A DNA stretch of 38,774 nt, from positions 1-38,774 of the forward strand of contig CADAER010000008.1 in NCBI GenBank assembly GCA_902787025.1, read 5' to 3'. The notes under the pieces were generated by a model that worked only from the letters and a program-made list of their open reading frames with translations, was not told the origin of the DNA and did not search any database. Below, in pieces: positions 24,003-38,774 of this stretch. Position 1 is the first letter of the stretch; each line of letters starts with the position of its first letter. Made by a program: the position numbers and the translations under genes. Origin of the DNA: Oscillospiraceae bacterium. GTDB taxonomy: Bacteria; Bacillota; Clostridia; Oscillospirales; Acutalibacteraceae.

Positions 24003-24090
24003 GGAGAGTTGTCCGAGTGGTCGAAGGTGCAGCACTCGAAATGCTGTGTGCAGAAATGCACCTAGGGTTCGAATCCCTAACTCTCCGCCA
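24003..24090 (+). tRNA. tRNA-Ser (anticodon CGA)
   Basis: The acceptor arms GGAGAGT and ACTCTCC pair. The D arm, a CAGCA/TGCTG anticodon stem with loop CTCGAAA (anticodon CGA at 24037-24039), a long variable arm (TGTGCAGAAATGCACC) and GGGTTCGAATCCC T arm are all present. The long variable arm and anticodon mark a class II serine tRNA reading UCG. The discriminator G and an encoded CCA (24088-24090) are present. A T-rich terminator follows. Confidence 0.97.
24069..24090. other. Probable attachment site at the tRNA-Ser 3' end (inferred)
   Basis: Many tyrosine integrases recombine at the T-arm/acceptor end of tRNA genes. Here the integrase gene is the first gene after the tRNA, and the base composition changes at the same place. 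No second copy of this sequence was seen in the window, so the other att site would lie beyond 38774. Confidence 0.4.
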
Positions 24091-24091
24091 G

Positions 24092-24130
24092 AAAAGCCTT
24101 GATACGTAAGCGTTTCGGGGCTTTTTTCTT
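24092..24130 (+). terminator. Terminator of the tRNA-Ser gene
   Basis: AAAAGCC (24092-24098) and GGCTTTTTTC (24119 on) flank an inner ACG/CGT stem, and a T-run follows. Confidence 0.75.
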
Positions 24131-24340
24131 TTTACCTCTCCGTTTCAGAAAAGCGTCATTAATGGAAAATTCAGTACGTTTTATTGGACTTATGCAAAAA
24201 ATCTTTATTTTTTTGCTCTGCGTTCTCAATTCGAATTTGCCCTTATAATTCAAGGGATTCAAAGACTGTTTGACTGAGATTTTGAGGAAAATGGCGAGAA
24301 AAATGAATGTTTTCTGTCATTTGTCCTCATTTTTTTGCAA

Positions 24341-25540
24341 CTATCCCTGCACTCCCCAGTCTTCTTTTATGACGGGTTCAGGCAAATTGAGAACACCATC
24401 CATCAGATAAGCTGACGAAATCTTTGACTTGAAATCAAGATGACTGTAGATATCTGCGGTAGTAGCTATATCCGAATGACCGAGCCATTCCTGTATCTCT
24501 TTTAGCGAAACACCATTGGCGAGAAGCAGAGACGCACAGCTGTGTCTCAGATCGTGAAAGCGGATTTTTCTGAAACCGTTTTCCTTGAGCAACTTTCCAA
24601 ACGCTTCAGTTACATTGTTAGGATTATAAATCTTTCCAATCCCATTTACGAATATATAATCAATATATTCCGTACAGTAGCTTTTACCGCATACTCTTCG
24701 GTTCTCTTCCTGCTGCTCTTTTAACTCTTTGAACGCTTTCTCAAATCTCGGAACAAGCGGCAAGGAACGCAGACTGGATTTTGTTTTAGCCCTATCCTCT
24801 TTTATAATTGTCTGCTTTCCGTCAATTTGCACCGTAGTCAGGATATGCTTGATTGTAATTGTTTTGTTTTCAAAATCAATTGCATCCCATCTAAGACCTA
24901 GCGTTTCACTGCGACGGAGACCATAAAAAGCTGTTACTTGAATAAGTAAACCGAGATAATGATTCTTGGTTGCATCAAATAATGCTTCAAGTTCCTCAAG
25001 GCTGTAGTGCTCTGCAATAAACTTTTGCTTTTTCGGCCTGTCAACTTTATCTGCCGGGTTGAAATCAATCAGATCCATTTTTAAAGCGTATTTCAGAGCT
25101 CTGTGGATATTTGCATGCTCATGGATTACGGTGTTAGGGCTGACAGTTTTCAGTTCATGAGCATAGAACATCTGAATATCCTTTGCGGCAATACTTGCCA
25201 CCGTGAAATCCTTCTTTTCAAAATACGGAACAATTTTATTTTTGACCATACTCGTGTAAGAAGCATAAGTTGTTTTCTCTACCGTAGGACGTATTATCTC
25301 GAGCCAAAGAAGCATATAATCAGAAAACTTCATATCGCTGTTTAAATCACCGGATAGTGATCTGGGCGGTTTAAAAGCTTTTCTTGTTTCAATAAGCATA
25401 TGCTCCGCTCTTGTTTTGTTGCCCTTTGCCGTCAGATACGTAGAAATCCATTTCTCTTTTCGTTTTCTTGTCTGCTCGTCGGTATAGCTGAGTACCATAT
25501 AATAGATATTGTTTTTAATTCTCAAGTGTCCTGCTACCAT
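24341..25540 (-). CDS. Tyrosine-type site-specific integrase
   Basis: This recombinase should integrate and excise the island at the tRNA. The 399-residue protein has an N-terminal arm-binding-type domain (HLRIKNNIYYMVLSYTD, with basic RKRKEKW), a SAM-like core-binding domain (about 70-165) and a catalytic domain with Arg209 (FYGLRRSE), His329 and Arg332 (FHDLRHS), His355 (LGHSDIATT) and nucleophile Tyr365 (ADIYSHL). All catalytic residues are present, so it looks active. GGAGG precedes the ATG at 25540. It points toward the tRNA, as is common for integrated elements. No separate excisionase gene was recognised. Confidence 0.95.
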   Translation of the reverse strand: MVAGHLRIKNNIYYMVLSYTDEQTRKRKEKWISTYLTAKGNKTRAEHMLIETRKAFKPPRSLSGDLNSDMKFSDYMLLWLEIIRPTVEKTTYASYTSMVKNKIVPYFEKKDFTVASIAAKDIQMFYAHELKTVSPNTVIHEHANIHRALKYALKMDLIDFNPADKVDRPKKQKFIAEHYSLEELEALFDATKNHYLGLLIQVTAFYGLRRSETLGLRWDAIDFENKTITIKHILTTVQIDGKQTIIKEDRAKTKSSLRSLPLVPRFEKAFKELKEQQEENRRVCGKSYCTEYIDYIFVNGIGKIYNPNNVTEAFGKLLKENGFRKIRFHDLRHSCASLLLANGVSLKEIQEWLGHSDIATTADIYSHLDFKSKISSAYLMDGVLNLPEPVIKEDWGVQG

Positions 25541-26950: not shown

Positions 26951-26978
26951 TTGAAATATTACATGCGTGTGCTATAAT
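26951..26978 (+). promoter_or_regulatory. Promoter of the restriction/defence operon
   Basis: TTGAAA (26951-26956), 16 bases, then TATAAT (26973-26978), about 50 bases before the restriction gene. No comparable promoter was seen between the later genes. Confidence 0.65.
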
Positions 26979-27028: not shown

Positions 27029-28522
27029 ATGCCTTCACTACCTTATGATAAAACAAATCCAATGAGCATAGAACAATATGCCAAGCTACTTATCGGACAC
27101 ACTTTTCAAGATGTGTTGGATGGTAACGTAGGCAAGTGCTCTCCCTCTCAGGAAAAAGCATCTGAATACAGTAATCCAAGCCGAAAAGGAGGACTTGGAA
27201 ATCTTCTTGAAGAAGTTTATTTTGAGTATAAAGCTAACAGCGAGTCAAAAGCGGATTTTGAAGAGGCGGGCGTTGAATTAAAAGCCACTCCGTATGAGTA
27301 TAACAGAAATGGTTCAGCAAAAGCCGGCGAAAGGCTCGTCCTTTCAATGATAAATTACAGCGGAGAAATAGAACCTACTCTTGAAGAATCCCATGTATGG
27401 CAAAAATGCAAATTGATTTTATTAATCTATTATTTGAGAGATAAATCTCTTAAAAGCAATTTGCAATACCCAATTGATTATGTAACTTTGTTTACTCCTT
27501 CAGAAACAGATAAAGCCATTATTGCTAATGACTACAAATACATTGCTGAAAAAGTCATGAGCGGACAGGCAGAAACACTCTCTGAAGCGGATACATTTTA
27601 TCTTGGCGCATGCACCAAGGGTTCAACGGCAGAAAAAAGTATTGTTAAACAGTTCTATCCTCCACACACTCCAGCAAAAAAACGAGCATTTTGTTATAAA
27701 AACTCATACATGACATATGTATTAAATGACTATGTTATGAAAGGAGTTATCACTTATCAGCAAGAAGAGCAATATGAATCTATATTAAAAGATGCATCCG
27801 AACTTGAAGGTAAAACATTTGCTGCTTTTATTGTTTCAAAGATTAACCATTATACTGGATTGACTGATAAAGAGTTATGTTCAAAATTTGATAGACAATA
27901 TAATAATAACAAAGCGCAATGGACTGATTTAGCATATAGAATGCTTGGAATAAAATCAAATAGAGCGGAAGAGTTTAGAAAAGCTAATTTAAAGGTTAAA
28001 GTAATACGCATTGAAGGAAACGGAAAAATGCGAGAAAGCATGTCATTCCCACCATTTAAGTATAAGGAATTAATTGAAGAAGAGTGGGAGGATTCAACCC
28101 TACACAATTACTTTGAAGAGACCCGGTTCTTATTTGTGGTTTTTAAGCGAAGTGGAGATAAATATATTCTCAAAGGTGCTCAGCTTTGGAATATGCCTCT
28201 TGAAGAATTAAATGACACAGTAAAAGCCGGATGGGATTCCATTGTTAATACAATAAAAGCTGGAATCAAATTTGAAATTGTTGAAACGGCAAATGGTGTT
28301 GTTGTTAAAAATAATCTGCCTAAAAAAGCAGATAATGAAATAATTCATGTAAGGTCGCACGCTCAAAAACGTTATTTTAAATTTACAGACGGGACTATTA
28401 TTGGCGAAGGAAACGAATCTGATGCCAATCAGCTCCCAGATGGCACATGGATGCCCCATTACAGCTTTTGGATTAACAACGATTATATTGAAAAACAGCT
28501 TGATAAAAATCTGTTGGATTAA
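27029..28522 (+). CDS. Sau3AI-like type II restriction endonuclease (MutH/Sau3AI fold), predicted GATC specificity
   Basis: The 497-residue length matches Sau3AI (about 490). The N-terminal catalytic domain carries KGGLGNLLEEVYF, then Asp76 and the ExK pair Glu83/Lys85 (GVELKATPYEY), the MutH/Sau3AI PD-(D/E)xK arrangement. The C-terminal half is probably the second, allosteric DNA-binding domain known in Sau3AI. AAGGAG precedes the ATG. A C5-methylase follows 21 bases later, the same order and type as the Sau3AI system, which cuts GATC unless the cytosine is methylated. GATC specificity is inferred from family resemblance. Confidence 0.88.
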   Translation: MPSLPYDKTNPMSIEQYAKLLIGHTFQDVLDGNVGKCSPSQEKASEYSNPSRKGGLGNLLEEVYFEYKANSESKADFEEAGVELKATPYEYNRNGSAKAGERLVLSMINYSGEIEPTLEESHVWQKCKLILLIYYLRDKSLKSNLQYPIDYVTLFTPSETDKAIIANDYKYIAEKVMSGQAETLSEADTFYLGACTKGSTAEKSIVKQFYPPHTPAKKRAFCYKNSYMTYVLNDYVMKGVITYQQEEQYESILKDASELEGKTFAAFIVSKINHYTGLTDKELCSKFDRQYNNNKAQWTDLAYRMLGIKSNRAEEFRKANLKVKVIRIEGNGKMRESMSFPPFKYKELIEEEWEDSTLHNYFEETRFLFVVFKRSGDKYILKGAQLWNMPLEELNDTVKAGWDSIVNTIKAGIKFEIVETANGVVVKNNLPKKADNEIIHVRSHAQKRYFKFTDGTIIGEGNESDANQLPDGTWMPHYSFWINNDYIEKQLDKNLLD

Positions 28523-28543: not shown

Positions 28544-29743
28544 ATGGAAAAAACAATTTGTGAACTCTTTGCCGGAGTCGGAGGCTTTCGACTTGGATTT
28601 GAAAGAGAAAACCCTGAATGGAAAACTGTTTGGTTTTCTCAATGGGAGCCAGGCAAAACGAAGCAATGGGCGCATGATTGTTATGTTTCTCATTGGGGAG
28701 ACATTGACGAAAGAACAGGTATTGATATAGGTGAAGTCGATAAGTCACTGATACCCGACCACAATCTTTTAGTAGGCGGATTTCCTTGTCAGGACTATTC
28801 AGTTGCAAGATCTTTGTCCGGCAGCCAGGGTATTGAAGGTAAAAAAGGTGTTCTTTGGTGGCAGATTAGAGATACAATTGAAACAAAGAAACCTCCGTTT
28901 TGCCTTTTTGAAAATGTTGATCGTCTTCTGAAATCGCCGGCATCACAAAGAGGAAGAGATTTTGGTGTAATTCTTGCGTGCCTTGCTCAGTTTAACTACT
29001 CTGTAGAGTGGAGGGTGGTTAATGCAGCTGATTATGGTGCTGGTCAAAGGCGAAGAAGAGTGTTCATATTTGCATACAAAAACAATACTAAGTACGGTGT
29101 TACTCAAAACGGTTTGTCAATTGATGAAATTTTAAAGTCATCCGGATTCTTTGCAAAAGTTTTTCCTATTGAACAAGAAATAAAAATAAGTTCTACTACA
29201 TTTGATTTTTCAGATATAGCATCCATATCGGAGAAATTTGCATTTCAATTTGAAAACTTAGGCTGCATGAGAAATGGAATAATCTATACTACCGATTCAA
29301 AGCCGATAATGGAAAAGCCCATTACGCTGAGAGAAATGGTTGAGTCTGATGTTGATGAAAAATATTACCTTGGAAAAAACCTTGAAAAATGGAAGTATCT
29401 AAAAGGAGCAAAAAAGATTTTAAGAACATCAAAAACAGGTCACCAGTATTATTTCAGTGAAGGTCCGATAGCATTTCCGGACAATCTTGATATGCCAGCA
29501 AGAACGATGCTTACATCAGAGTCTTCGGTTAATCGTAGTACACATGTTATTGAAGACCCGCAGACAAAGCAATATCGTCTTTTAACTCCAATAGAGACAG
29601 AAAGAATTCAAGGGTTTGATGATAACTGGACAAATACAGGAATGCCCGAAAAATTCAGATACTTCTGTATGGGGAATGCGCTAGTCGTTCCAATGATAAC
29701 AAGGATGGCAAAACAGTTAGATCTGATTTTTTCAGAAGAATAA
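28544..29743 (+). CDS. DNA (cytosine-5)-methyltransferase, partner of the Sau3AI-like enzyme
   Basis: The 399-residue protein has C5-methylase motifs in order: I (ELFAGVGGFRLGFE), IV (GGFPCQDYSVA, catalytic Cys82), VI (FENVDRLLKSPASQRGRDF), VIII (GAGQRRRRVFIFAY), a variable target-recognition region (about 195-310), IX (RLLTPIETERIQGF) and X (MGNALVVPMITRM). It should methylate the same site as its restriction partner and so protect the host DNA. The next gene, a sigma factor, starts 48 bases downstream in the same direction. Confidence 0.93.
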   Translation: MEKTICELFAGVGGFRLGFERENPEWKTVWFSQWEPGKTKQWAHDCYVSHWGDIDERTGIDIGEVDKSLIPDHNLLVGGFPCQDYSVARSLSGSQGIEGKKGVLWWQIRDTIETKKPPFCLFENVDRLLKSPASQRGRDFGVILACLAQFNYSVEWRVVNAADYGAGQRRRRVFIFAYKNNTKYGVTQNGLSIDEILKSSGFFAKVFPIEQEIKISSTTFDFSDIASISEKFAFQFENLGCMRNGIIYTTDSKPIMEKPITLREMVESDVDEKYYLGKNLEKWKYLKGAKKILRTSKTGHQYYFSEGPIAFPDNLDMPARTMLTSESSVNRSTHVIEDPQTKQYRLLTPIETERIQGFDDNWTNTGMPEKFRYFCMGNALVVPMITRMAKQLDLIFSEE

Positions 29744-29791: not shown

Positions 29792-30883
29792 ATGAATATT
29801 GAGTTAATTTTAAAGCTAATTGAACCATATTCTCGCGGTGGAATGCTAACATATGATGACTTTGAAAAAGCATTTAGCATGTTGTCTCTTCGTGAAAAAT
29901 ATGCAGTTTGCGAAATATTAAATGAGAATGGGTTTGAATTATGTGATGAATATGATGACGATGAAGTTACTTCAAAAGAAGAAAACATGGAAGCGTTTGA
30001 AATATTCTCAGACAACTTTGACGATTTAGATAATGACGATGACGATGTAAAGATTGAACAAAAAGATGAAATTGTTATACAATATTCCAATATAAAGCAA
30101 TCAAATCGGAATCTTATAGCTCTGATTCAGCGAGGAAGCAAACAAGCAGAAAACGATTTATGTGTGAAAAATAAGAATCTTGTAGCAAAACGTGCCCAAA
30201 AATATTTTCAGGTTTTTGGCAACAATCTTGAATTTGAAGACTTAATGCAATCCGGTTTTATAGGGATGATTAAAGCGGCTCGTCGTTTCGATTTAAATCG
30301 AGATAATAGCTTTAGTACATATGCTGTGCATTGGATTGATCAAAGCATATCCAGAGCTGTAATTGATACTGGATTTACCACAAGAATTCCCGTTCACGAA
30401 TTTGATTTTATAAAGAAGGTAGTGCGCTATAACAATGACTTTGACTATATGGGATATGAATATAACGACAGGGTGAAATTGATTGCTGAAGCTTTATGTG
30501 TATCTGAAGAGAAAGTACTTGATACTATGCGTATTTATTCACAATTTTTGAAGCGAGCATCACTTGATGCTCCTGTTAATGAAGATGGAGACACCTGTCT
30601 TGGAGAATTAATTCCATATTATGATGAAATGAACATTGAAAAAACAACAGAATCAGGATCATTAACTGAAGAGCTTAATGATGTATTAAATACTTTACGA
30701 CCTAGGGAGGCACAAGTTTTAAGGCTTAGATTTGGACTTGAGGACGGAACACCGCACACACTGGAGGAAATCGGAGTAGTATTCAATGTTACTAGAGAGC
30801 GTATCAGACAAATAGAAGCAAAAGCTTTAAGGAAACTAAGACACCCTTCAAGAAGCAAAAAACTTAAAGATTTCCTGGAATGA
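29792..30883 (+). CDS. RpoD/SigA-family sigma factor encoded in a defence operon
   Basis: The 363-residue protein has the layout of a primary sigma factor. Residues 13-52 (SRGGMLTYDDFEKAFS... to GFELCDE) resemble region 1.1. Residues 53-93 are an Asp/Glu-rich linker. Region 2 spans about 105-205 (LVAKRAQKYF, EDLMQSGFIGMIKAARRFD, FSTYAVHWIDQSISRAV, TTRIPVHEF). Region 3 is divergent. Region 4 (294-363) is nearly identical to SigA (TLEEIGVVFNVTRERIRQIEAKALRKLRHPSRSKKLKDFLE, shown in parts). Region 1.2 is poorly conserved. In region 2.3/2.4 His180, Asp183 and Ser187 replace residues equivalent to E. coli Trp433, Arg436 and Thr440. GAGGAG precedes the ATG; the helicase starts 9 bases after its stop. 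It could direct polymerase to operon promoters or work with the nucleases. Confidence 0.92.
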   Translation: MNIELILKLIEPYSRGGMLTYDDFEKAFSMLSLREKYAVCEILNENGFELCDEYDDDEVTSKEENMEAFEIFSDNFDDLDNDDDDVKIEQKDEIVIQYSNIKQSNRNLIALIQRGSKQAENDLCVKNKNLVAKRAQKYFQVFGNNLEFEDLMQSGFIGMIKAARRFDLNRDNSFSTYAVHWIDQSISRAVIDTGFTTRIPVHEFDFIKKVVRYNNDFDYMGYEYNDRVKLIAEALCVSEEKVLDTMRIYSQFLKRASLDAPVNEDGDTCLGELIPYYDEMNIEKTTESGSLTEELNDVLNTLRPREAQVLRLRFGLEDGTPHTLEEIGVVFNVTRERIRQIEAKALRKLRHPSRSKKLKDFLE

Positions 30884-30892
30884 GGAGATAAT

Positions 30893-32860
30893 ATGAGCGT
30901 ATTAATAAATGTAATCGGTTCAAAGCCGAAATCTGATGAATATCAATGTGCAGTTAAGCTTAAAAGAATACTAGAAGATGGACTTCCGAAGAACGCTATG
31001 GGCGAAATAGTCCTTCATGCTAATGCAACATTAGTTGGTCAGACTGTTAAGGACATTGATCTTTTAGCAATGGGAACATTGCAGAATTGTTCAATGAATT
31101 TATCAATTACTGATAAGAACAGTGAAATATCAAACGAGAACATAATTATAGATAGTTTTTGCACTTGTATTGAGATAAAGAGCCACAGTATAAACGGAAT
31201 ATTTAGAGAAGGAACGGAAGTATATGTAAAATATGGTGCGGAACAACATTCTGTAACAACGCAATCAAATGAGCAAAAAATATCTGCTAAAAACTTTTTT
31301 TCAAGAATTCTTGGCGGTTTTTCTCCTTATGTTTCTAATCTAATTTGGTTAAATGGTATAACTAAAGATGAGCTCGACAGTCTTTTAAAAATCGAAGGTA
31401 AAATAATGCCCTCGAATATTCTGTCTTGTGAGTTTGAAGTAAAACACTTCATGCAACTATTAATGTGGCAGAAAAGCCCTTCTTTTTATCGGGGTAACTA
31501 CCATTTTGATTCTTGCTTCGCAGGAAAAACAGTTAAGGACTTTCAAAATGCACTTAGTGCACTCGGAAAAGCGAAAAGTTGTATGGGAGAACTTACTAGA
31601 AAACGTATTGAACAAATAACTCAAAAAGCAATATCTTCAAATCTAACAAAACTCGGTGAAGATAAGCTTGTTATATATAGAGGAAAAGCTGGAACAGGTA
31701 AGACGGTTGGGTTAATACAAACAGCAATTGATTTAGTGGATGAGTTTGATGCTCGGGTTGTTATTCTGACTTATAACAAAGCATTGGTTTCAGATATAAG
31801 AAGACTATTCACTTTAGCCGAGCTCCCGGATATGTTTCAAGATTCATGTGTTCATATTTGTACTATGCATTCATTTTTTTACAGAATCATAAACAGCACA
31901 CTATATGACGGAAACTTGAGTGGAGAAAAATTCATTAATAATTATCAAGCATTAATGGTAGAACTACTTGAACTTTTCTCTGATTCTGACGGTAAACAAT
32001 TAATAGATGAAATACTTAGCAAAGACACTCATTTAAATTGGGAATACTGTCTTGTTGACGAAGCACAAGATTGGTCACAAGTAGAGATGGATGTACTTTT
32101 GCAACTGTTTTCTATTGACAAAATCATTGTTGCGGATGGAGGACAGCAATTTGTTAGAAATGAAGAGGTTTGCGATTGGTCTACTGTTTCTTCCAGGAAA
32201 AACGTTAAACTTAAATATTGTTTAAGGCAAAAGAACAATATCGTTAATTTCATTAATCACTATCTGAATAGTATTGGCGAATCAAATCAGAAAATTCTAA
32301 CAAATGACAAGCTTGCTGGTGGAAGAATAGTTATTACGCAATCAGATAATAGTTTGATACCGATGATAAAAGACGAACTCTTATACCTAAAAAAATATGG
32401 TAACATACCATATGATATGATTGTGTTTGTTCCGTCATCATATGTGGAAAAAAGCCCTAGAAGGTTTTCACAAAAGTCATTATTTGAAAAGAATGATATT
32501 ACTATTTGGGATGGTACAAACGAAGAGGAAAGAGAGAACTATTCTTTGCTTGGTGATGATGTTCGAGTCCTTCAATATGAATCCGGTCGAGGATTAGAGG
32601 CATGGGTTGTTATTTGTGTTGACTTTGACGAATATATTCAAGAAAAAATCTCTCAGTTTGATAACAGCAAATCAACCAACAAACTATTATTAGAAAGCGA
32701 AGATGACTTGAAACTAAAGCATTTAGTTAACTGGTCTTTGATTCCATTGACCCGTGCCATAGATACTGTTGTAATTACAATAAAAAATCCTACTTCTAAA
32801 ACAGCAACGATTTTAAAAAGAATCGCAGAAGAAAATCCGGATTATATAACTATCAAATAG
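30893..32860 (+). CDS. NERD-type nuclease domain fused to a UvrD/Rep-like superfamily 1 helicase
   Basis: The 655-residue protein begins with a nuclease-like domain: a possible conserved Glu early on, then KDIDLLAMG (Asp56) and CIEIKSH (Glu94, Lys96), the PD-(D/E)xK pattern of NERD domains. The helicase part has Walker A GKAGTGKT (264-271), motif Ia VVILTYNKALVSDIRR, Walker B DEAQD (389-393), Gln-containing DGGQQF, and C-terminal VLQYESGRGLEAWVVI and PLTRAIDTVVIT. This is the layout of NERD-helicase proteins often found near defence genes. AGGAG overlaps the stop of the sigma factor gene. Another helicase follows 9 bases later. Confidence 0.88.
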   Translation: MSVLINVIGSKPKSDEYQCAVKLKRILEDGLPKNAMGEIVLHANATLVGQTVKDIDLLAMGTLQNCSMNLSITDKNSEISNENIIIDSFCTCIEIKSHSINGIFREGTEVYVKYGAEQHSVTTQSNEQKISAKNFFSRILGGFSPYVSNLIWLNGITKDELDSLLKIEGKIMPSNILSCEFEVKHFMQLLMWQKSPSFYRGNYHFDSCFAGKTVKDFQNALSALGKAKSCMGELTRKRIEQITQKAISSNLTKLGEDKLVIYRGKAGTGKTVGLIQTAIDLVDEFDARVVILTYNKALVSDIRRLFTLAELPDMFQDSCVHICTMHSFFYRIINSTLYDGNLSGEKFINNYQALMVELLELFSDSDGKQLIDEILSKDTHLNWEYCLVDEAQDWSQVEMDVLLQLFSIDKIIVADGGQQFVRNEEVCDWSTVSSRKNVKLKYCLRQKNNIVNFINHYLNSIGESNQKILTNDKLAGGRIVITQSDNSLIPMIKDELLYLKKYGNIPYDMIVFVPSSYVEKSPRRFSQKSLFEKNDITIWDGTNEEERENYSLLGDDVRVLQYESGRGLEAWVVICVDFDEYIQEKISQFDNSKSTNKLLLESEDDLKLKHLVNWSLIPLTRAIDTVVITIKNPTSKTATILKRIAEENPDYITIK

Positions 32861-32869
32861 GAGAAAAAC

Positions 32870-35800
32870 ATGTCAAACACTATATTAAAAAACCGAATTG
32901 AAAAATGCGTTAATAATTTAGTTGTAGATGATAATATAATCATTGTAATAAAAGGTATGCCTTTTGATTTAATTGATACTGAAGCAGCTCAATCTATTAA
33001 TTATGATGAGATTATAAAAAATAAATTTAGCTATATGATGAGTATTGTTGGGAAACGCAAGTTTATTACATATGAAGAATTCCTTTTATTGAGTGATTTT
33101 ATAGTCTCCCAGTATTCTACTGTTTACATTTTGACAAACAATATATACTTGGAACAGTATCCTTTAAACCTATACTGTTCTTCAAAAACCATACAGGGAA
33201 TCATTACTCATTTTGAAGAATCTGATTCTGAAGAAGATGATGATAGAGAAGTTGGAAATATAGAGGAGATAATATCTCTTTTTGTCGGTGTCAAGGACTT
33301 TAACGGCTATCTAATCGGTGCTTACTGCGATGATAAAGCTTTAAGCAACCCAAAAATTGAAGCAATTAATATTTTTGAAGAATGTGAAGAGAACATTCAA
33401 AAAGTCGCTGATTCAGATGATTTTGTTGATTTAATAGAAGAATCGGACTATGTGTCGCTGATTAAAAAAGTGTTTGATGAGCCTGATGAAATATATATTA
33501 GGATTTCGAATTACACAGGTGATTTTTATAAATTAAAGAGTCATCTAAGTATTCTTGCTAAAAACTGGTCTGATTGGACTGATTTTTACATTGTTCAGGC
33601 ACAAGAAGTTGAAGAGTCATTTGAGCATCGCAGTGAGTACACAGAAATTTTGAAAAAGTACTGGGGACACGGCTCGTTTAGAAATATCGAGGTTTATGAT
33701 GTCCCATCTCTTGAAGAAGGAAAGAAAAAAGTTGTTAAAATCTCACAAGAGAACATAATTTCAAACCTTGTTGACCAAGTTGAAAAGTGTTCTGACAACA
33801 ATAAAGCTTTTAGAGATATGTTTGTAACTGCTCCTACTGGAGCAGGTAAATCTGTTATGTTTCAAATACCGGCAATTTATTTAGCAGAGAAACACAATTT
33901 GCTTACAATTGTCATTTCTCCGCTTATAGGTTTAATGAATGACCAAGTAAAAAATCTTGAAGTTAAAAATTATAAAGCTGCTAAAACAATCAATTCCGAC
34001 ATATCTCCAATTATTAAACAAGATATAATGGAAAAGGTTGCCGACAGTCATTATCACATTTTGTATATTTCTCCAGAAACATTGTTGAGCCGCAGTGATG
34101 TCGAACAATTGATTGGCGATAGAACGATTGGTATGATTGTAATTGATGAAGCACACATTGTTACTACTTGGGGAAAACAATTTAGGCCAGATTATTGGTA
34201 TTTAGGAGATCATATCAGGAAGCTTAGAAAAAAACAACTTGAGAGAAAAGGTCGTTCATTTGTTGTTGCTACCTTCACGGCAACCGCAATCTATCATGGT
34301 TTTGAAGACATGTATACAGAAACTGTAAACAGCTTACATATGTTAAATCCCATAACCTACTTGGGATATGTAAAACGTGATGATATAGATATTACAATCA
34401 CTAGGAAAGTTAAAGAAAATGGTCAAAGATCAGAGTATGAGTTAGATAAGGATTTTCAAATAGCTCAATTGGTAGAACGAGCGATTATCATGAACAAAAA
34501 AACGCTAATCTATTTCCCAACGATTGCTTTAATCAACAGATGTTATGAGGCTTTGCGATGTTACAAATCCCGTATTAAGCTTTTGCCCCAAGTTTCTATT
34601 TATCATGGTTCCCTTGATAAAGATAAGAAAGCAGAAAGCTATGAAAAGTTTTACAATGGTGAAAAACTGGTGATGTTAGCAACTAAGGCGTTTGGTATGG
34701 GAATTGATATTGATAATATTGAAATTGTCGCTCATTTTGCACCAACAGGAAATGTATGTGATTATGTTCAGGAAGTAGGTAGAGCGGCAAGAAGACCCGG
34801 TTTGAACGGCGAGGCTGTTTATCACTATGATTCTAGAGATTTTAAGCATATTAATAGACTTCATGGCTTATCAACAATACAGAAGTATCAGCTCATTGAA
34901 GTGATAAAGAAAATCACAGAATTATACTCTAATAGTTTAAAAAATGGAGGAAGAAACAACTTTACTAGGCGAAGGAACTCAATGCTTTTGGATGCTGAGA
35001 ATTTTTCTTATATTTTTGGCACTCCAATCAGTGATGAGGATTCTGATATTAATAAAGTAAAAACCGCATTACTCATAATTCAAAAGGACTTTGAAAACCG
35101 CATAGGATTTTCCCCCATTAATGTAAGACCAATACCGTTATTCTCTTTTGGTTATTTTAAAATAAGAGAAAAAACTCAAGAAATGTTGAAGAGTCGATAT
35201 TACGAATGTTTAGAAGAAATTGAGCCGGATAAGAATATATGTAGAATTAACTTGCAGAAAATATGGGACAAAGATTATCGTGGAATGTCGTTTCCACAGT
35301 TTAAATACTTAGTATACAGTAATAACAGCAATGAAGAGCTTGATTGTAATTTTGTTGATGAGTATCCGATGACACCGGCTCTGTGTGTTAATATAGAATT
35401 TGGTTCTGATTATAAAAGTTTATTTGAAAAATCCTGGAATGTAATTCAGTCATTCATTAATCAGCAAGTTCTTTTAGGAAAACATACTTCAATTATGGAA
35501 ATAACCAATGCAATTTCTCAAGGCTGCAACATTTCAGAATACAAAGCCCGGGCCATAACAGAGGTAATCATAGCTTCTATGGATTCTTATAGAAAGAATT
35601 TTTCTAGAAGTTCAACACCTATAGCGATTGAAAAAGCCACAAAAGACGGCAATATAAAGTATCAGTTCAATGTTGCTGTTAATAGCTATTTCAAATGGGT
35701 TGAGAATAAGTTTAATAATATTATTCAAGAAACCGTTGAAGGTGAGCTTTATCTTGTAAATGATAATGGTATCAAAGCAAAAGAAATAAGTGTTGTGTTA

Positions 35801-36109
35801 GGTATATTGGAATCTCTTGACGTGCTTTCATTCAAAATGATTGGTGGAGAAAGCAGTCAATTATACATTTATATCAACCAAATTCAGAGTCTTATCAATA
35901 TTATCAATTCTCCTGGTCGCTATGATAATAGGTTGCTTGACACAGTTGGCGAACGTCATCTGGTTTCGGTAAAAATGCTAACCTACTTATACGAAGGTAA
36001 TTTTACCAGCGACGAAACATGGGATATTATCGAAAACTATTTTCTTGGTATTATCCCGGAAACTGTTAAGAAGAATTGCAGAATAGAAAACCCGGCAATA
36101 GATATTTAG
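32870..36109 (+). CDS. RecQ-like DEAH helicase with a large unassigned N-terminal region (1079 aa)
   Basis: Residues 1 to about 300 have no domain I recognise; the segment 118-130 is very acidic (ESDSEEDDDREVG). The helicase core carries Walker A APTGAGKS (321-328), VISPLIGLMNDQVKNL (Ia), YISPETLL (Ib), DEAH (426-429), FTATA (III), then the second lobe with IYHGSLDKDKK, ATKAFGMGIDIDNI (V) and QEVGRAARRPG (VI), all RecQ-like. The last ~430 residues are helical, with winged-helix-like stretches (SIMEITNAISQGCNISEYKAR, KAKEISVVLGILESLDVLSF) but no obvious RecQ zinc site or HRDC domain. AGGAG precedes the ATG. DpdF of the Dpd system is another large RecQ-like defence helicase; I do not claim orthology. 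Confidence 0.88.
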   Translation: MSNTILKNRIEKCVNNLVVDDNIIIVIKGMPFDLIDTEAAQSINYDEIIKNKFSYMMSIVGKRKFITYEEFLLLSDFIVSQYSTVYILTNNIYLEQYPLNLYCSSKTIQGIITHFEESDSEEDDDREVGNIEEIISLFVGVKDFNGYLIGAYCDDKALSNPKIEAINIFEECEENIQKVADSDDFVDLIEESDYVSLIKKVFDEPDEIYIRISNYTGDFYKLKSHLSILAKNWSDWTDFYIVQAQEVEESFEHRSEYTEILKKYWGHGSFRNIEVYDVPSLEEGKKKVVKISQENIISNLVDQVEKCSDNNKAFRDMFVTAPTGAGKSVMFQIPAIYLAEKHNLLTIVISPLIGLMNDQVKNLEVKNYKAAKTINSDISPIIKQDIMEKVADSHYHILYISPETLLSRSDVEQLIGDRTIGMIVIDEAHIVTTWGKQFRPDYWYLGDHIRKLRKKQLERKGRSFVVATFTATAIYHGFEDMYTETVNSLHMLNPITYLGYVKRDDIDITITRKVKENGQRSEYELDKDFQIAQLVERAIIMNKKTLIYFPTIALINRCYEALRCYKSRIKLLPQVSIYHGSLDKDKKAESYEKFYNGEKLVMLATKAFGMGIDIDNIEIVAHFAPTGNVCDYVQEVGRAARRPGLNGEAVYHYDSRDFKHINRLHGLSTIQKYQLIEVIKKITELYSNSLKNGGRNNFTRRRNSMLLDAENFSYIFGTPISDEDSDINKVKTALLIIQKDFENRIGFSPINVRPIPLFSFGYFKIREKTQEMLKSRYYECLEEIEPDKNICRINLQKIWDKDYRGMSFPQFKYLVYSNNSNEELDCNFVDEYPMTPALCVNIEFGSDYKSLFEKSWNVIQSFINQQVLLGKHTSIMEITNAISQGCNISEYKARAITEVIIASMDSYRKNFSRSSTPIAIEKATKDGNIKYQFNVAVNSYFKWVENKFNNIIQETVEGELYLVNDNGIKAKEISVVLGILESLDVLSFKMIGGESSQLYIYINQIQSLINIINSPGRYDNRLLDTVGERHLVSVKMLTYLYEGNFTSDETWDIIENYFLGIIPETVKKNCRIENPAIDI

Positions 36110-36134
36110 AATTCGAAGATTGGAAGGTATAAGC

Positions 36135-38429
36135 ATGGCGTTCATTTTGAATAAACCAGACGATATGAAATTAATCTATGAAACATCTAAGTTGGTGTTC
36201 AATGGAGAAACTAATTTGTCTGAAGAAAAAGAGCGTTTAGCTAGTATTACGGGAGCCTCTGAAACATCTATAGGAATGTATTTTGACATTTATTATATGA
36301 TGAGAAAGGGAAAGTGCTTCAAACGTGGGACAAGTGGTGCGTATGTAAAATACTTAGTAAAAAGCATCTATAAAGATAATGGTCTTGATGCTGCAATTAA
36401 AGCTTTATCGTCAGCTAAATCAAATTCGATATATCAAGGAGCAAAAAGCATTGAAAGAGTGTGTAAAGAAGTAATTACAGAACTCGGATTGAGTATTAGC
36501 TATGATGAATTGGAAACTGATAAAAGTAATGAAAATAACGTTGACAATAATTGGTACCCTTCGCCTAACGACTACAATTCCGGAATCGCGAAAGAAGATT
36601 GGCTTGAGATTCTAAATAATAAAAACATTATCGGTCCTGTGTGGGGAAATGTTCTTGCAATGTTCTATACGGAGCCTGATGGTGCTACCTGTAAATACAT
36701 CGGAAACAAATTTCACGATGATCCGTTTTCAATTTCTGGAAAATGTACAAATTTAGCTAAAGCCATTTACAGAGAAACAAATTGCCCCATAATGGAAAAA
36801 GAGGATGGTGGAAAAAAGTATTGGCCTATTCTTTTCTTGGGCAGAGATGCAGGCAAAGATATGCCTGGCCAATGGGTTTGGAAACTTCGTCCCGAACTTT
36901 ATGATGCTTTAACTGAATTTGAAATATGGAATTACCTTCATAAGACAGGAAAGTTTTATTCTTGGGAAATCGTTGATGAGACAACTGCAATTAAAACTTG
37001 CGACAAATCATTTTTTGAGTTTGCTGGGTCAGGTATACCGAAAGAAATTTGCTGGTTTTTCAGCTTTGAAAACGCACAACCCGGTGAAAGTAAAGATGTT
37101 GTATTAACTTTTGAGGGAAACGATTATAAGGCACGTATCAAAAATGATACAACAGATAGGTTTCGCACAACAATCAATTGGTACACTGATCTAAGCACTG
37201 AATTTGCCAAAAATAAAAAAGATGACTTATCAGTTGTTTTCCGCAAAGTTTCACTCGACAAATATGAATTAAGCATAAAAGGTGGTGAGGCCTCAATGAC
37301 AACAAAACAGATGCTTGACGAAATCAAGAAGTATATAGCTGCAAGGGGCTTCACATATGAAGGCTCTTTGATTGAGAATTTCTATCTCAGTCTTAAATCC
37401 AAGCCTTTTGTTATTCTAGCCGGCACATCGGGCACAGGCAAAACAAAACTTGCCGAATACTTTGCCGATGCTGTAGGCGGCAGAAAAGAACTCGTTCCAG
37501 TTCGCCCTGATTGGTCCGATTCATCCGATCTTTTCGGTCATATTAACCTTAAAGGCGAATTCACTGCGGGTGCAATTATTGATTTTATAAAAGAAGCAAA
37601 CGAAAACAAGGGTAAACCTTATTTCCTGATTTTTGATGAAATGAATCTCGCCAGAGTGGAATACTACATGAGCGACTTTCTCTCGGTTCTTGAAACAAGG
37701 AGAAAAAGTGAAACAAACAATGAAATAATCACCGCTCCTCTCTTTAAAGACAGCATTCTCGGTAATGACGAGTCCGCGCTCAAAAAGTATTCAGGTCTGA
37801 CCATACCGGATAATCTTTACATTATAGGCACGGTAAATATGGACGAGACTACATTTCCGTTCAGCAAGAAAGTTCTCGACCGTGCAAATACAATTGAATT
37901 CAGCTATGTTGATCTTTCGCCTGTATTTGAGGATTACGGCTCTGTTGAAAAACCTATTCCGGTTCAGAATGATTATTTGAAGCCTTCTTTCATAAGGCTA
38001 CAGGAATGCTCCGGTCATAAAGATACTGTTCAGAAAACATGTGATGAATTGGTGAGAATTAATGATAAACTGAAAGCCGCCGATTTGCATGTCGGATACA
38101 GAATCCGTGATGATTTCTGTTTCTATATGATTAACAGAGAAATGGCAGACGTTCTCAGTTTTGATGAAGCTTTTGACAATCAGATTATGCAAAAAATACT
38201 TCCGAGGATACAAGGCAGCAGTTCATCGGTAAAAGAAGTGATTCAGGAGTTATTCAAAATATGCGCCGGCGATTATACAGGAATGGCCGATAACGGAAGC
38301 ATTAATGAAAGCATGAAACATTTTATTGAAACAAAACAGGATCAATGTAAATACTATAAGTCAGCCGAAAAGCTTGTATATATGATGAGGAGATACGAAG
38401 AGGATGGGTTCACTTCCTACTGGCTCTAA
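36135..38429 (+). CDS. McrB-type AAA+ NTPase with multi-part N-terminal recognition region
   Basis: The 764-residue protein starts at the ATG at 36135 (GGAAGG upstream); the TTG at 36120 is less likely. Residues 1-115 are helical (KLVFNGETNLSEEKERLASITG). Residues about 140-260 form a wHTH-like segment (GPVWGNVLAMFY, YRETNCPIMEKEDGGKKYWPILFLGR, VWKLRPELYDAL). Residues about 265-385 are beta-rich (VVLTFEGNDYKARIKNDTTDRFR). The AAA+ module carries Walker A GTSGTGKT (430-437), Walker B FDEMN (500-504) in the McrB signature DEMNLARVEYYMSDFLSVLE, and the NMDE sensor-like motif. It is likely the motor of a McrBC-type restriction complex with the next gene, which overlaps its 3' end. Confidence 0.88.
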   Translation: MAFILNKPDDMKLIYETSKLVFNGETNLSEEKERLASITGASETSIGMYFDIYYMMRKGKCFKRGTSGAYVKYLVKSIYKDNGLDAAIKALSSAKSNSIYQGAKSIERVCKEVITELGLSISYDELETDKSNENNVDNNWYPSPNDYNSGIAKEDWLEILNNKNIIGPVWGNVLAMFYTEPDGATCKYIGNKFHDDPFSISGKCTNLAKAIYRETNCPIMEKEDGGKKYWPILFLGRDAGKDMPGQWVWKLRPELYDALTEFEIWNYLHKTGKFYSWEIVDETTAIKTCDKSFFEFAGSGIPKEICWFFSFENAQPGESKDVVLTFEGNDYKARIKNDTTDRFRTTINWYTDLSTEFAKNKKDDLSVVFRKVSLDKYELSIKGGEASMTTKQMLDEIKKYIAARGFTYEGSLIENFYLSLKSKPFVILAGTSGTGKTKLAEYFADAVGGRKELVPVRPDWSDSSDLFGHINLKGEFTAGAIIDFIKEANENKGKPYFLIFDEMNLARVEYYMSDFLSVLETRRKSETNNEIITAPLFKDSILGNDESALKKYSGLTIPDNLYIIGTVNMDETTFPFSKKVLDRANTIEFSYVDLSPVFEDYGSVEKPIPVQNDYLKPSFIRLQECSGHKDTVQKTCDELVRINDKLKAADLHVGYRIRDDFCFYMINREMADVLSFDEAFDNQIMQKILPRIQGSSSSVKEVIQELFKICAGDYTGMADNGSINESMKHFIETKQDQCKYYKSAEKLVYMMRRYEEDGFTSYWL

Positions 38430-38774
38430 TAAGCTTATTGCAATACGCACTGAGCAGCTTGAACTGACAATCAAATCAAAGGAAAAACAGACTGCCCTCT
38501 TTGTGAATGAAGAGGAACAGTCTTCTTCAGTGCTGGTTGCGGGTTATGGAATTGAGTCGGTAAGAATAGACAGTCAGAATATTGAAATAAACGGTGCAAC
38601 GGGTGAATCTTATTCTTCAAGAAACATTAAAGTTAATCCGATGTTTTTTGAGCAGACCGATTATGAAATTGTTGTCAGAAGCAGAAACGGTCAATCTGTA
38701 TCTGTATGGCATGAGACTCCTTTGATAAGAGACAGGATTTCATCGGTTATTGATGATAACAATTCACTTGTTAC
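38404..38774 (+). CDS. Probable DUF2357/McrC-like partner protein, 3' partial
   Basis: The frame begins with the ATG at 38404, overlapping the McrB gene by 26 bases, with GAGGAG about 10 bases upstream, and is open to the window end (123 codons). It reads MGSLPTGSNKLIAIRTEQLE at the start, then a beta-rich segment (SVLVAGYGIESVRIDSQN, DYEIVVRSRNGQSVSVWHET), then RDRISSVIDDNNSLVT. That tail resembles the N-terminal part of DUF2357 proteins, which often pair with McrB and end in a PD-(D/E)xK nuclease; the nuclease part is not in the window. The coupled start argues for a fixed-ratio complex with McrB. Confidence 0.65.
   Translation, partial: MGSLPTGSNKLIAIRTEQLELTIKSKEKQTALFVNEEEQSSSVLVAGYGIESVRIDSQNIEINGATGESYSSRNIKVNPMFFEQTDYEIVVRSRNGQSVSVWHETPLIRDRISSVIDDNNSLV

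What the first reader, a model, noticed from the sequence alone, without database searches (positions are those of the whole stretch)
29792..38774. Candidate new defence system: sigma factor, NERD-helicase, RecQ-like helicase, McrB, DUF2357
Five genes run in one direction with gaps of 9, 9 and 25 bases and then an overlap, with one promoter at 26951-26978 ahead of the R-M pair. The parts are two helicases, two probable nucleases, an AAA+ motor and a transcription factor. I cannot match this set to a named system. A working idea is that sigma-bound polymerase or R-loops on invading DNA recruit the helicase-nuclease complex, with R-M as a first barrier.
Basis: inference. Interest (0 to 1): 0.85.

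Follow-up and report, generated by a model that had tools for sequence, protein, structure and literature searches.

The report
Sigma factor and RecQ helicase pair
On a mobile island in a bacterial draft genome, a gene for a promoter-reading sigma factor is tied to a gene for a RecQ-type DNA helicase, and the same two genes recur side by side in many related loci, which suggests an undescribed, probably defensive module rather than the five-gene system first proposed.

Summary
Two corrections: the McrB and DUF2357 genes are an McrBC (type IV restriction) pair, and the conserved unit is not the five genes but the sigma factor plus the RecQ-like helicase. In 75 of the 80 best relatives of the helicase, a sigma-70 gene lies next to it on the 5' side, in five of these with a NERD-UvrD gene between; four of the other five start at a contig end. 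These helicases form one clade, sigma and helicase distances correlate (r = 0.89), promoter-reading residues are nearly invariant and helicase motifs are kept. A NERD-like UvrD helicase-nuclease is an optional third gene (12 of 80), in two gene orders; McrB was found in 1 of 80. The window genes sit on a tRNA-Ser island of about 24.6 kb with a 55-bp att repeat; none of 25 sampled congeners shows the helicase. PADLOC holds the helicase only as a placeholder ('poss. alt. Cas3'); ten literature searches found no description of the pair. A defence role is likely but untested. Best mechanism (inference): sigma targets or senses transcription-active DNA or RNA polymerase, and the helicase is the motor.

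The parts
29792..30883 (+). RpoD-like sigma-70 factor (363 aa); first gene of the conserved pair
   Evidence: Sigma70_r2, r4 (r3 below cut-off) in Pfam; about equally close to RpoD and MzaA models, far below the cut-off of both; next to the RecQ-like gene in 75 of 80 relatives; -10/-35 contact residues nearly invariant
32870..36109 (+). RecQ-like SF2 helicase (1079 aa) with family-specific N- and C-terminal parts; second gene of the conserved pair
   Evidence: DEAD, Helicase_C; match over residues 5-1061 to PADLOC C3a193 'poss. alt. Cas3' E=2.3e-139; TGAGKS 323, DEAH 426, GRAAR 637; AF2 model pLDDT 85.5, best PDB matches RecQ cores
30893..32860 (+). NERD-like PD-(D/E)xK domain (inferred) fused to a UvrD-type helicase (655 aa); optional third component
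   Evidence: UvrD-helicase; D54, D56, E94, K96, Walker A and DEAQDW invariant in 12 of 12; present in 12 of 80 loci in two orders
36120..38429 (+). McrB-like AAA+ motor; not conserved with the pair
   Evidence: AAA_5, PDC-M26A, McrB model PRK11331 below its cut-off, NMDE motif at 573; McrB hit in L098 only, of 80
38404..38774 (+). Start of McrC (DUF2357 + PD-(D/E)xK), cut by the contig end; the rest is on contig C11 (L155 9408-11513, - strand)
   Evidence: 9 shared bases and continuing frame; DUF2357 and PDDEXK_7
27029..28522 (+). Sau3AI-family type II restriction enzyme; neighbouring cargo
   Evidence: NF040973 E=2e-159, 531.5 bits over a cut-off of 300
28544..29743 (+). C5-cytosine methyltransferase of the R-M pair; neighbouring cargo
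   Evidence: PF00145 E=8.8e-64
26951..26978 (+). Promoter-like site ahead of the R-M pair, TTGAAA-16-TATAAT with TG
   Evidence: Best of 60 sites; score 11.5
24341..25540 (-). Tyrosine integrase of the island
   Evidence: Phage_integrase E=3.2e-28
24036..24090 (+). 3' end of tRNA-Ser(CGA); 55-bp exact repeat on contig C11, read as the att site and left end of the island
   Evidence: tRNA 24003-24090; repeat

Best explanation
The finding is a mobile two-gene module, probably anti-invader, made of an RpoD-like sigma factor and a RecQ-like helicase that work as one unit. An optional NERD-UvrD helicase-nuclease joins it, and in this genome it is packed on a tRNA island with a Sau3AI-type R-M pair and an McrBC pair. 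Shown: the pairing, its co-inheritance, the kept helicase and DNA-reading residues, and the mobile setting. Inferred mechanism: the sigma factor reads promoter DNA and/or binds RNA polymerase core and so directs the helicase to transcription-active DNA, where opened DNA gives the motor its entry. The helicase then unwinds or strips the invading DNA and exposes it to the NERD-like nuclease or to neighbouring restriction enzymes. How self DNA is spared is not known.
For: Sigma lies on the 5' side of the helicase in 75 of 80 kept loci: directly in 70, with only the NERD-UvrD gene between in 5. Four of the other 5 hold 0-270 bases upstream of the helicase; one (L073) truly lacks sigma. 72 of the 75 are on one strand, and in 68 of 72 the sigma gene ends at most 20 bases before the next gene or overlaps it. 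Wider sample: of 8 genomes other than this one with the family (398 searched), 5 have sigma adjacent, in tandem (3), divergent (1) or downstream (1); the 3 without are the lowest scorers. The sigma-linked group is one clade of 85 rows at 100. Sigma and helicase distances correlate, r=0.887, n=75, 0 of 2000 permutations as high. Sigma residues matching E. coli T429, Y430, W434, Q437 are kept in 79, 79, 78, 77 of 79, and those matching E585, R586, R588, Q589 in 76 of 76 covering rows: this looks like a working promoter reader. The NERD-UvrD gene occurs in two orders, and a second NERD-UvrD family lies near the same helicase in L012/L073, L064, L068, L099. Weak hints of a polymerase link: the NERD-UvrD protein has a weak HelD hit (17.3 bits, cut-off 419) and a polymerase-bound HelD is among its structural matches (rank 29). 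Mobility: 55-bp att repeat, plasmid copies, 1 of 26 genomes of the genus, this one. Defence neighbours: N6_Mtase 8 and Methylase_S 7 of 91 downstream proteins, at most 1 of 100 control proteins each; PADLOC models hit 329 and 160 against 31 in the control.
Against: No phage test and no evidence of physical contact. In 200 genomes of the own family, three others have a relative of the helicase (E up to 1e-60) and none of the three has this sigma beside it: G167 (= L012/L073) inside the clade, G101 and G103 outside. In 68 of 85 loci the R-M query set found nothing, and the locus count, 17 of 85 against 1 of 20, is not significant (p=0.18) and used queries drawn from the test loci. No sigma-docking domain is shown: of 10 sigma-less rows outside the clade, the C-terminal part is detected in 10 and the N-terminal part in 5. 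The loop matching E407/N409 of RpoD, which I recall as core-binding, is diverged, so core binding may be weak. The 80 loci are the best scorers of 251 and were found with an alignment in which 4 of 5 rows have sigma beside them, so 75 of 80 describes this subfamily.
Confidence: 0.35

Rival explanations
1. Sigma as a defence switch: the sigma factor is a dedicated transcription factor that turns on the island (R-M, McrBC) on infection, and the helicase regulates or works beside it. This resembles CASP-sigma and the Calp system.
For: Precedent in print: CASP-sigma is held by an inhibitor whose cleavage is proposed to release it to activate defence genes (PMC10028731, passages); Calp gives a transcriptional response (PMC12751052, start of abstract in a listing). 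Promoter-reading residues are kept. The sigma gene comes first, or second after NERD-UvrD, in 72 of 75 loci.
Against: No excess of promoter-like sites (10 of 73 upstream regions against 11% in shuffles) and no credible shared motif upstream of the module. Apart from the NERD-UvrD family, no neighbour family is in more than 10 of the loci clustered, so there is no fixed regulon in view. The constant partner is a helicase, not a known anti-sigma protein.
Confidence: 0.27
2. Guard or toxin-antitoxin type: the sigma factor is a bait that mimics RpoD region 4, the target of some phage anti-sigma proteins (recalled). When it is captured or lost, a toxic RecQ-like helicase is freed, as in PsyrTA.
For: Region 4.2 of the window sigma is identical to host RpoD over 24 residues. 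Sigma-first order and tight coupling resemble antitoxin-toxin pairs. The helicase core matches PsyrT at 159.6 bits.
Against: A bait would not need kept -10 contacts, yet they are nearly invariant. PsyrT similarity covers the helicase core only. In L073 the helicase is present without sigma.
Confidence: 0.15
3. Not defence: a mobile module that handles transcription-replication conflicts or R-loops for its element, as RECQL5 does with RNA polymerase II (recalled).
For: After bacterial RecQ the best solved relatives by profile and by fold include human RECQL5. In 68 of 85 loci no R-M query hit was found.
Against: Patchy spread (9 of 398 genomes), excess of R-M families among close downstream genes, and a PADLOC placeholder for the helicase.
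Confidence: 0.13
4. The five genes (or seven with the R-M pair) are one integrated system.
For: One direction, tiny gaps, 26-base overlap, no + strand terminator-like site. McrB and DUF2357-PDDEXK_7 also follow the helicase in L098.
Against: McrB was found in 1 of 80 loci, 61 of which have 2.5 kb or more downstream; Sau3AI hits occur in 4 of 80, one of them weak. McrBC is a complete known kind by itself (PMC11090510, passages).
Confidence: 0.07

Closest known systems
MZA system (MzaA sigma factor with MutL, Z1, DUF and AIPR proteins; the make-up is recalled)
   Same: A sigma-70 factor belongs to a defence operon; the sigma domains align (residues 94-363 to 405-669 of MzaA)
   Different: No other MZA protein in the PADLOC lists shown; the sigma scores 246.7 against a cut-off of 800 for MzaA and is half its length; the partner is a RecQ-like helicase
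PADLOC C3a193 ('poss. alt. Cas3') and C3a187 ('NERD+UvrD')
   Same: Near full-length match of the helicase (E=2.3e-139); weak match of the NERD-UvrD protein of L058 to C3a187 (E=1.3e-7)
   Different: Placeholders with no named system; no sigma factor in the label; CRISPR-like arrays in 2 of 80 loci, against 1 of 20 control regions
CASP-sigma of type III-E CRISPR (PMC10028731, passages)
   Same: A sigma factor in a defence locus
   Different: ECF-type sigma with an inhibitor, Csx30; here an RpoD-type sigma with a helicase, and no CRISPR-like array in the window
PsyrTA, Dpd (DpdF), Shango (SngC)
   Same: RecQ-like helicase core
   Different: Partners differ; matches cover the helicase core and little more
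McrBC type IV restriction / PADLOC PDC-M26
   Same: The last two window genes: McrB-type AAA+ and DUF2357-PD-(D/E)xK
   Different: Not part of the sigma-helicase unit; found there in 1 of 80 relatives

Membership tests
MZA | MzaA model above its NCBIfam cut-off | tested here: not met
   246.7 bits, cut-off 800
MZA | MutL, Z1 and AIPR partner genes | tested here: not met
   No such match listed for the nine window proteins scanned (in one search only the best 25 rows were shown for the methyltransferase and the helicase)
McrBC type IV restriction | McrB AAA+ motor with signature motif | tested here: met
   AAA_5, McrB model hit below its cut-off, NMDE at 573
McrBC type IV restriction | McrC: DUF2357 plus PD-(D/E)xK | tested here: met
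   E=1.2e-60 and 3.1e-47 on contig C11; adjacency to the window inferred from 9 bases and frame
PsyrTA | PsyrT over its whole length and a PsyrA partner | tested here: not met
   Core only, 38-335 of 689; no PsyrA match listed
Dpd (7-deazaguanine) | DpdF equivalog above cut-off and further Dpd genes | tested here: not met
   127.5 bits, cut-off 550; only the helicase itself hit Dpd models
Gabija | GajA nuclease with GajB | tested here: not met
   Only weak GajB hits of the UvrD-type helicase, no GajA listed
Type I CRISPR (Cas3 replacement) | CRISPR array or Cascade genes nearby | tested here: not met
   No array found in the window; 2 of 80 relatives have one; apart from helicase-core hits of the RecQ-like and UvrD-type proteins, no Cas model listed for the nine window proteins
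Sau3AI-type R-M | Sau3AI equivalog plus C5 methyltransferase | tested here: met
   531.5 bits over cut-off 300; PF00145; specificity not tested
Anti-phage defence system | Protection against phage or plasmid | not testable with these tools
   Needs an experiment

The most novel reading that the evidence does not exclude
Sigma-guided immunity: a cell uses the promoter-reading machinery itself, a dedicated RpoD-like sigma factor, to aim a RecQ-like helicase, and where present a NERD-UvrD nuclease, at transcription-active invading DNA. This is the role that Cascade plays for Cas3, with an open promoter complex in place of a guide-RNA R-loop.
Probability: 0.22. Interest if true: 0.9.

Novelty: new variant of a known kind. 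Interest (0 to 1): 0.66.

Why it matters
A sigma factor locked to a DNA helicase in many Bacillota and a few gut lineages filed under other phyla would be a direct link between transcription initiation and attack on foreign DNA. It would make testable whether bacteria use promoter recognition, or the takeover of RNA polymerase by phages, as a signal of infection. It also gives a function to look for in a helicase family that PADLOC holds only as a placeholder.

Tried and rejected
Single-sequence search of genome contigs with the helicase gave no relative; an alignment of five relatives did. Phage records gave six matches, all to the RecQ core, and viral contigs gave three relatives without sigma in the stretch held.

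A promoter or operator shared by the modules: rejected, no excess and no credible motif (the GC-rich words found occur in few loci and may be coding sequence, not checked). CRISPR association: rejected. Enrichment of tRNA genes beside the loci: not seen, 10 of 85 against 5 of 20. A sigma-specific domain in the helicase: not shown; the N-terminal part, found in 5 of 10 sigma-less rows outside the clade, stays a candidate. Sigma factors as repeated recruits of host rpoD: not supported; 76 module sigmas and 7 RpoDs separate on one branch, but with support of only 80. Two sigma genes near the helicase in L014 look like sporulation sigma factors (my reading of the sequences; 48 and 47 bits) and were not counted as partners.

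Structure of the NERD-UvrD protein: pTM 0.40; Foldseek finds UvrD/Rep, Upf1, Sen1, GajB, HelD, Dna2 and KaiC proteins at low TM-scores; the nuclease domain was not confirmed by fold, and no solved chain matched its profile.

Rows dropped: 18 of 109 downstream and 3 of 70 upstream neighbour proteins were left out by hand before the family tallies. The distance test used 75 of the pairs, with sigma over 300 aa and helicase over 900 aa. Control proteins (100) came from 20 round-number positions in 7 genomes. Of 52 plasmid records with a helicase match I opened six: sigma adjacent in four, two of them near-identical L. plantarum plasmids, not in H7 and H8.
Full report
OBSERVATION. The window is the whole of contig C8 of a 2.26-Mb draft genome that is 87.7% complete. 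Pfam, PADLOC and NCBIfam give sigma-70, UvrD-type helicase, RecQ-type helicase and an McrB-like AAA+ protein. The last gene runs off the contig. Contig C11 of the same genome, read from its end, shares nine bases with the end of the window and continues the frame into DUF2357 (E=1.2e-60) and a PD-(D/E)xK domain (E=3.1e-47). McrC is described as DUF2357 plus such a nuclease (PMC11090510, passages), so genes four and five are read as an McrBC pair.

ISLAND. A 55-bp stretch of the tRNA-Ser 3' end (24036-24090) is repeated exactly on contig C11, and a tyrosine integrase lies beside the tRNA gene. If the contigs abut, the island is about 24.6 kb: integrase, a Sel1-repeat protein, the Sau3AI-type R-M pair, sigma, NERD-UvrD, RecQ-like, McrBC, a protein with a CoiA N-terminal domain, several proteins without a clear family, and a GTPase. 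Of 26 genomes of the genus, this one included, only this one has the helicase at E up to 1e-100; 11 of the 26 are at least 90% complete with low contamination.

THE CONSERVED UNIT. An alignment of five relatives (A3) brought 251 relatives of the helicase from genome contigs, of which the best 80 were kept. ORF calling and phmmer with the window proteins show a sigma-70 gene on the 5' side of the helicase in 75 of 80: directly in 70, with only the NERD-UvrD gene between in 5. Of the other five, L041, L055, L095 and L098 hold 270, 0, 2 and 1 bases upstream, and L073 holds almost 10 kb and no sigma. In 72 of the 75 the sigma gene is on the same strand and in 3 on the other; the median gap to the next gene is 3.5 bases and 68 of 72 are 20 or less. 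By record titles most rows are Bacillota, with 8 Gastranaerophilales and one each filed as Mycoplasmatota and Deferribacterota; many are metagenome bins, so the outliers are provisional. Plasmids of Enterococcus faecium and Lactiplantibacillus plantarum carry the pair too, the first 36 bases after a type I R-M gene.

CHECK AGAINST SELECTION. Since the search favours near relatives, I took 398 genomes spread over the phylum. Nine have the family, this genome included. Of the other eight, sigma is in tandem in three, divergent in one, downstream in one (where the helicase frame has a stop), and not seen in three, which score lowest. In the own family the picture is poorer: of 200 genomes, three others have a relative at E up to 1e-60, and none of the three has this sigma beside it. 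In the helicase tree all 85 rows of the sigma-linked group form one side of a branch with support 100; L008, L009, L013, L014, L099, L100 and L101 lie outside (FastTree, with long outer branches). L073, the same sequence as L012 (G167), lies inside and lacks sigma, so it looks like a loss. Sigma and helicase distances correlate at r=0.887 over 75 pairs; the highest of 2000 permutations is 0.176. Linked genes are expected to share history, so this shows joint inheritance, not contact.

WHAT THE PROTEINS KEEP. In 79 sigma sequences the residues matching E. coli T429 and Y430 are kept in 79, W434 in 78, Q437 in 77; in region 4.2, residues matching E585, R586, R588 and Q589 are kept in all 76 that cover it (numbering; the roles of these residues are recalled). 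The window sigma is identical to the host RpoD over 24 residues of region 4.2, but differs in the loop matching Q406-N409 (QSGF against QEGN) and at W433 (H). The RecQ-like protein keeps its helicase motifs and gives a confident model (pLDDT 85.5, pTM 0.81) whose best solved matches are RecQ cores. Of 10 sigma-less rows outside the clade, its C-terminal part is detected in 10 and its N-terminal part in 5. The NERD-UvrD protein has invariant D54, D56, E94, K96, Walker A and DEAQDW in 12 of 12; the NERD name rests on this pattern, on a weak hit of one relative to PADLOC 'NERD+UvrD' and on the predicted alpha/beta order of the N-terminus, not on a Pfam hit.

OPTIONAL AND CHANGING PARTNERS. The NERD-UvrD gene is in 12 of 80 loci: between sigma and helicase in 5 (L020, L022, L023, L025, L032), as in the window, and before sigma in 7 (L019, L026, L028, L036 as a 108-aa piece, L042, L049, L058); L031 has a 93-aa end of it at the contig start. 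Of the 80, 62 hold at least 2 kb upstream, so 12 is a lower bound. A second NERD-UvrD family, tested in L068 (true NERD hit; match to the DRT-associated NERD helicase E=8e-72), lies by the helicase in L012/L073, L068 and L099, and as a cut piece two genes before sigma in L064. Recurrence in different orders and from two families argues for function rather than hitch-hiking. Sau3AI hits lie downstream in L019, L023, L026 and, weakly (22 bits), L058. Type I R-M genes adjoin or follow in several Paenibacillus loci and L051 (clusters c3, c5, c10, c23; named from the E. faecium annotation and the Pfam tally). A cluster whose member in L023 is an AspBHI/Mrr-type enzyme is in L023, L026, L049 and L058. 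McrB was hit in L098 only, with 61 of 80 loci holding 2.5 kb or more downstream.

DEFENCE SETTING. Of 91 downstream proteins (of 109 listed), 8 match N6_Mtase and 7 Methylase_S; in 100 control proteins neither is among the 25 families shown, so each has at most one, p about 0.015 and 0.029 if the control had one. The 67 upstream proteins (of 70) show less: ResIII in 3, Vsr in 2. PADLOC models hit number 329 for the downstream set, 160 for the upstream set and 31 for the control; many models are redundant. A locus count with R-M queries taken from these same loci, 17 of 85 against 1 of 20, is not significant. So the setting is defence-rich on average, but many loci show no R-M gene.

MECHANISM. 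I rank targeting or sensing by sigma with the helicase as motor first. The strict pairing across different neighbours, without a shared promoter motif, suits a joint machine better than a local gene switch, and nearly invariant DNA-reading residues suit a promoter-binding role better than a pure bait. The switch reading has direct precedent and stays close behind. No step of the mechanism is shown.

LITERATURE. Searches in the held library listed no paper that I could see to describe a sigma-RecQ pair; listings were capped, and subscription papers and supplements were not searched. Passages were read in PMC12839542, PMC10028731, PMC11090510 and PMC13373217; of PMC12751052 only the start of the abstract in a listing. 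The PADLOC label 'poss. alt. Cas3' shows that others had noticed the helicase family.

VERDICT. Observation confirmed; five-gene interpretation replaced by a conserved sigma/RecQ-like pair with optional NERD-UvrD, carried with separate R-M and McrBC cargo. I found no description of this architecture; its function is unproven.

Noticed in passing
window 24003-25540 and L155 (contig C11) 1560-1614: tRNA-Ser integration site with a 55-bp exact direct repeat. In nine congener stretches held, parts of the left flank or the tRNA match, but of the island's right flank only the tRNA part does; the site may be a hotspot.
   Followed up: partly
L155 1645-2808 (-): A GTPase with MMR_HSR1, Dynamin_N and DUF697 matches sits next to the right att copy; function on the island unknown.
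   Followed up: no
L155 2833-7268: Cluster of proteins between the CoiA-like gene and the GTPase; of the two scanned, one has no family and one DUF4230.
   Followed up: no
L063 3564-7774: Both the sigma and the helicase genes are split in the same Thermoanaerobacterium locus, as if the pair decays together or the contig has errors.
   Followed up: no
L038, L040, L043, L046, L050, L067: A small protein (about 142 aa, cluster c7) recurs upstream of sigma in selenomonads; 6 of 67 upstream proteins match low-molecular-weight phosphotyrosine phosphatase, probably these six.
   Followed up: no
L015 6560-16684: A distant relative of the NERD-UvrD protein lies between an 1805-aa DEAD/DEAH helicase and a C5 methyltransferase with an MvaI/BcnI-family enzyme on an Alisedimentitalea plasmid: another possible defence operon.
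   Followed up: no
L076 11014 on; L081 5132 on: CRISPR-like repeat arrays (at least 11 and 26 copies of one word) in the flanks of two sigma-helicase loci.
   Followed up: no
L137 4533-6578 (-): A 681-aa protein hits the window McrB by phmmer near a divergent sigma-helicase pair but has no Pfam match at 0.001.
   Followed up: partly
window about 29950-30060: The sigma factor has an acidic stretch between its N-terminal part and region 2; similar acidic stretches occur in the E. faecium and L. plantarum sigma factors.
   Followed up: no
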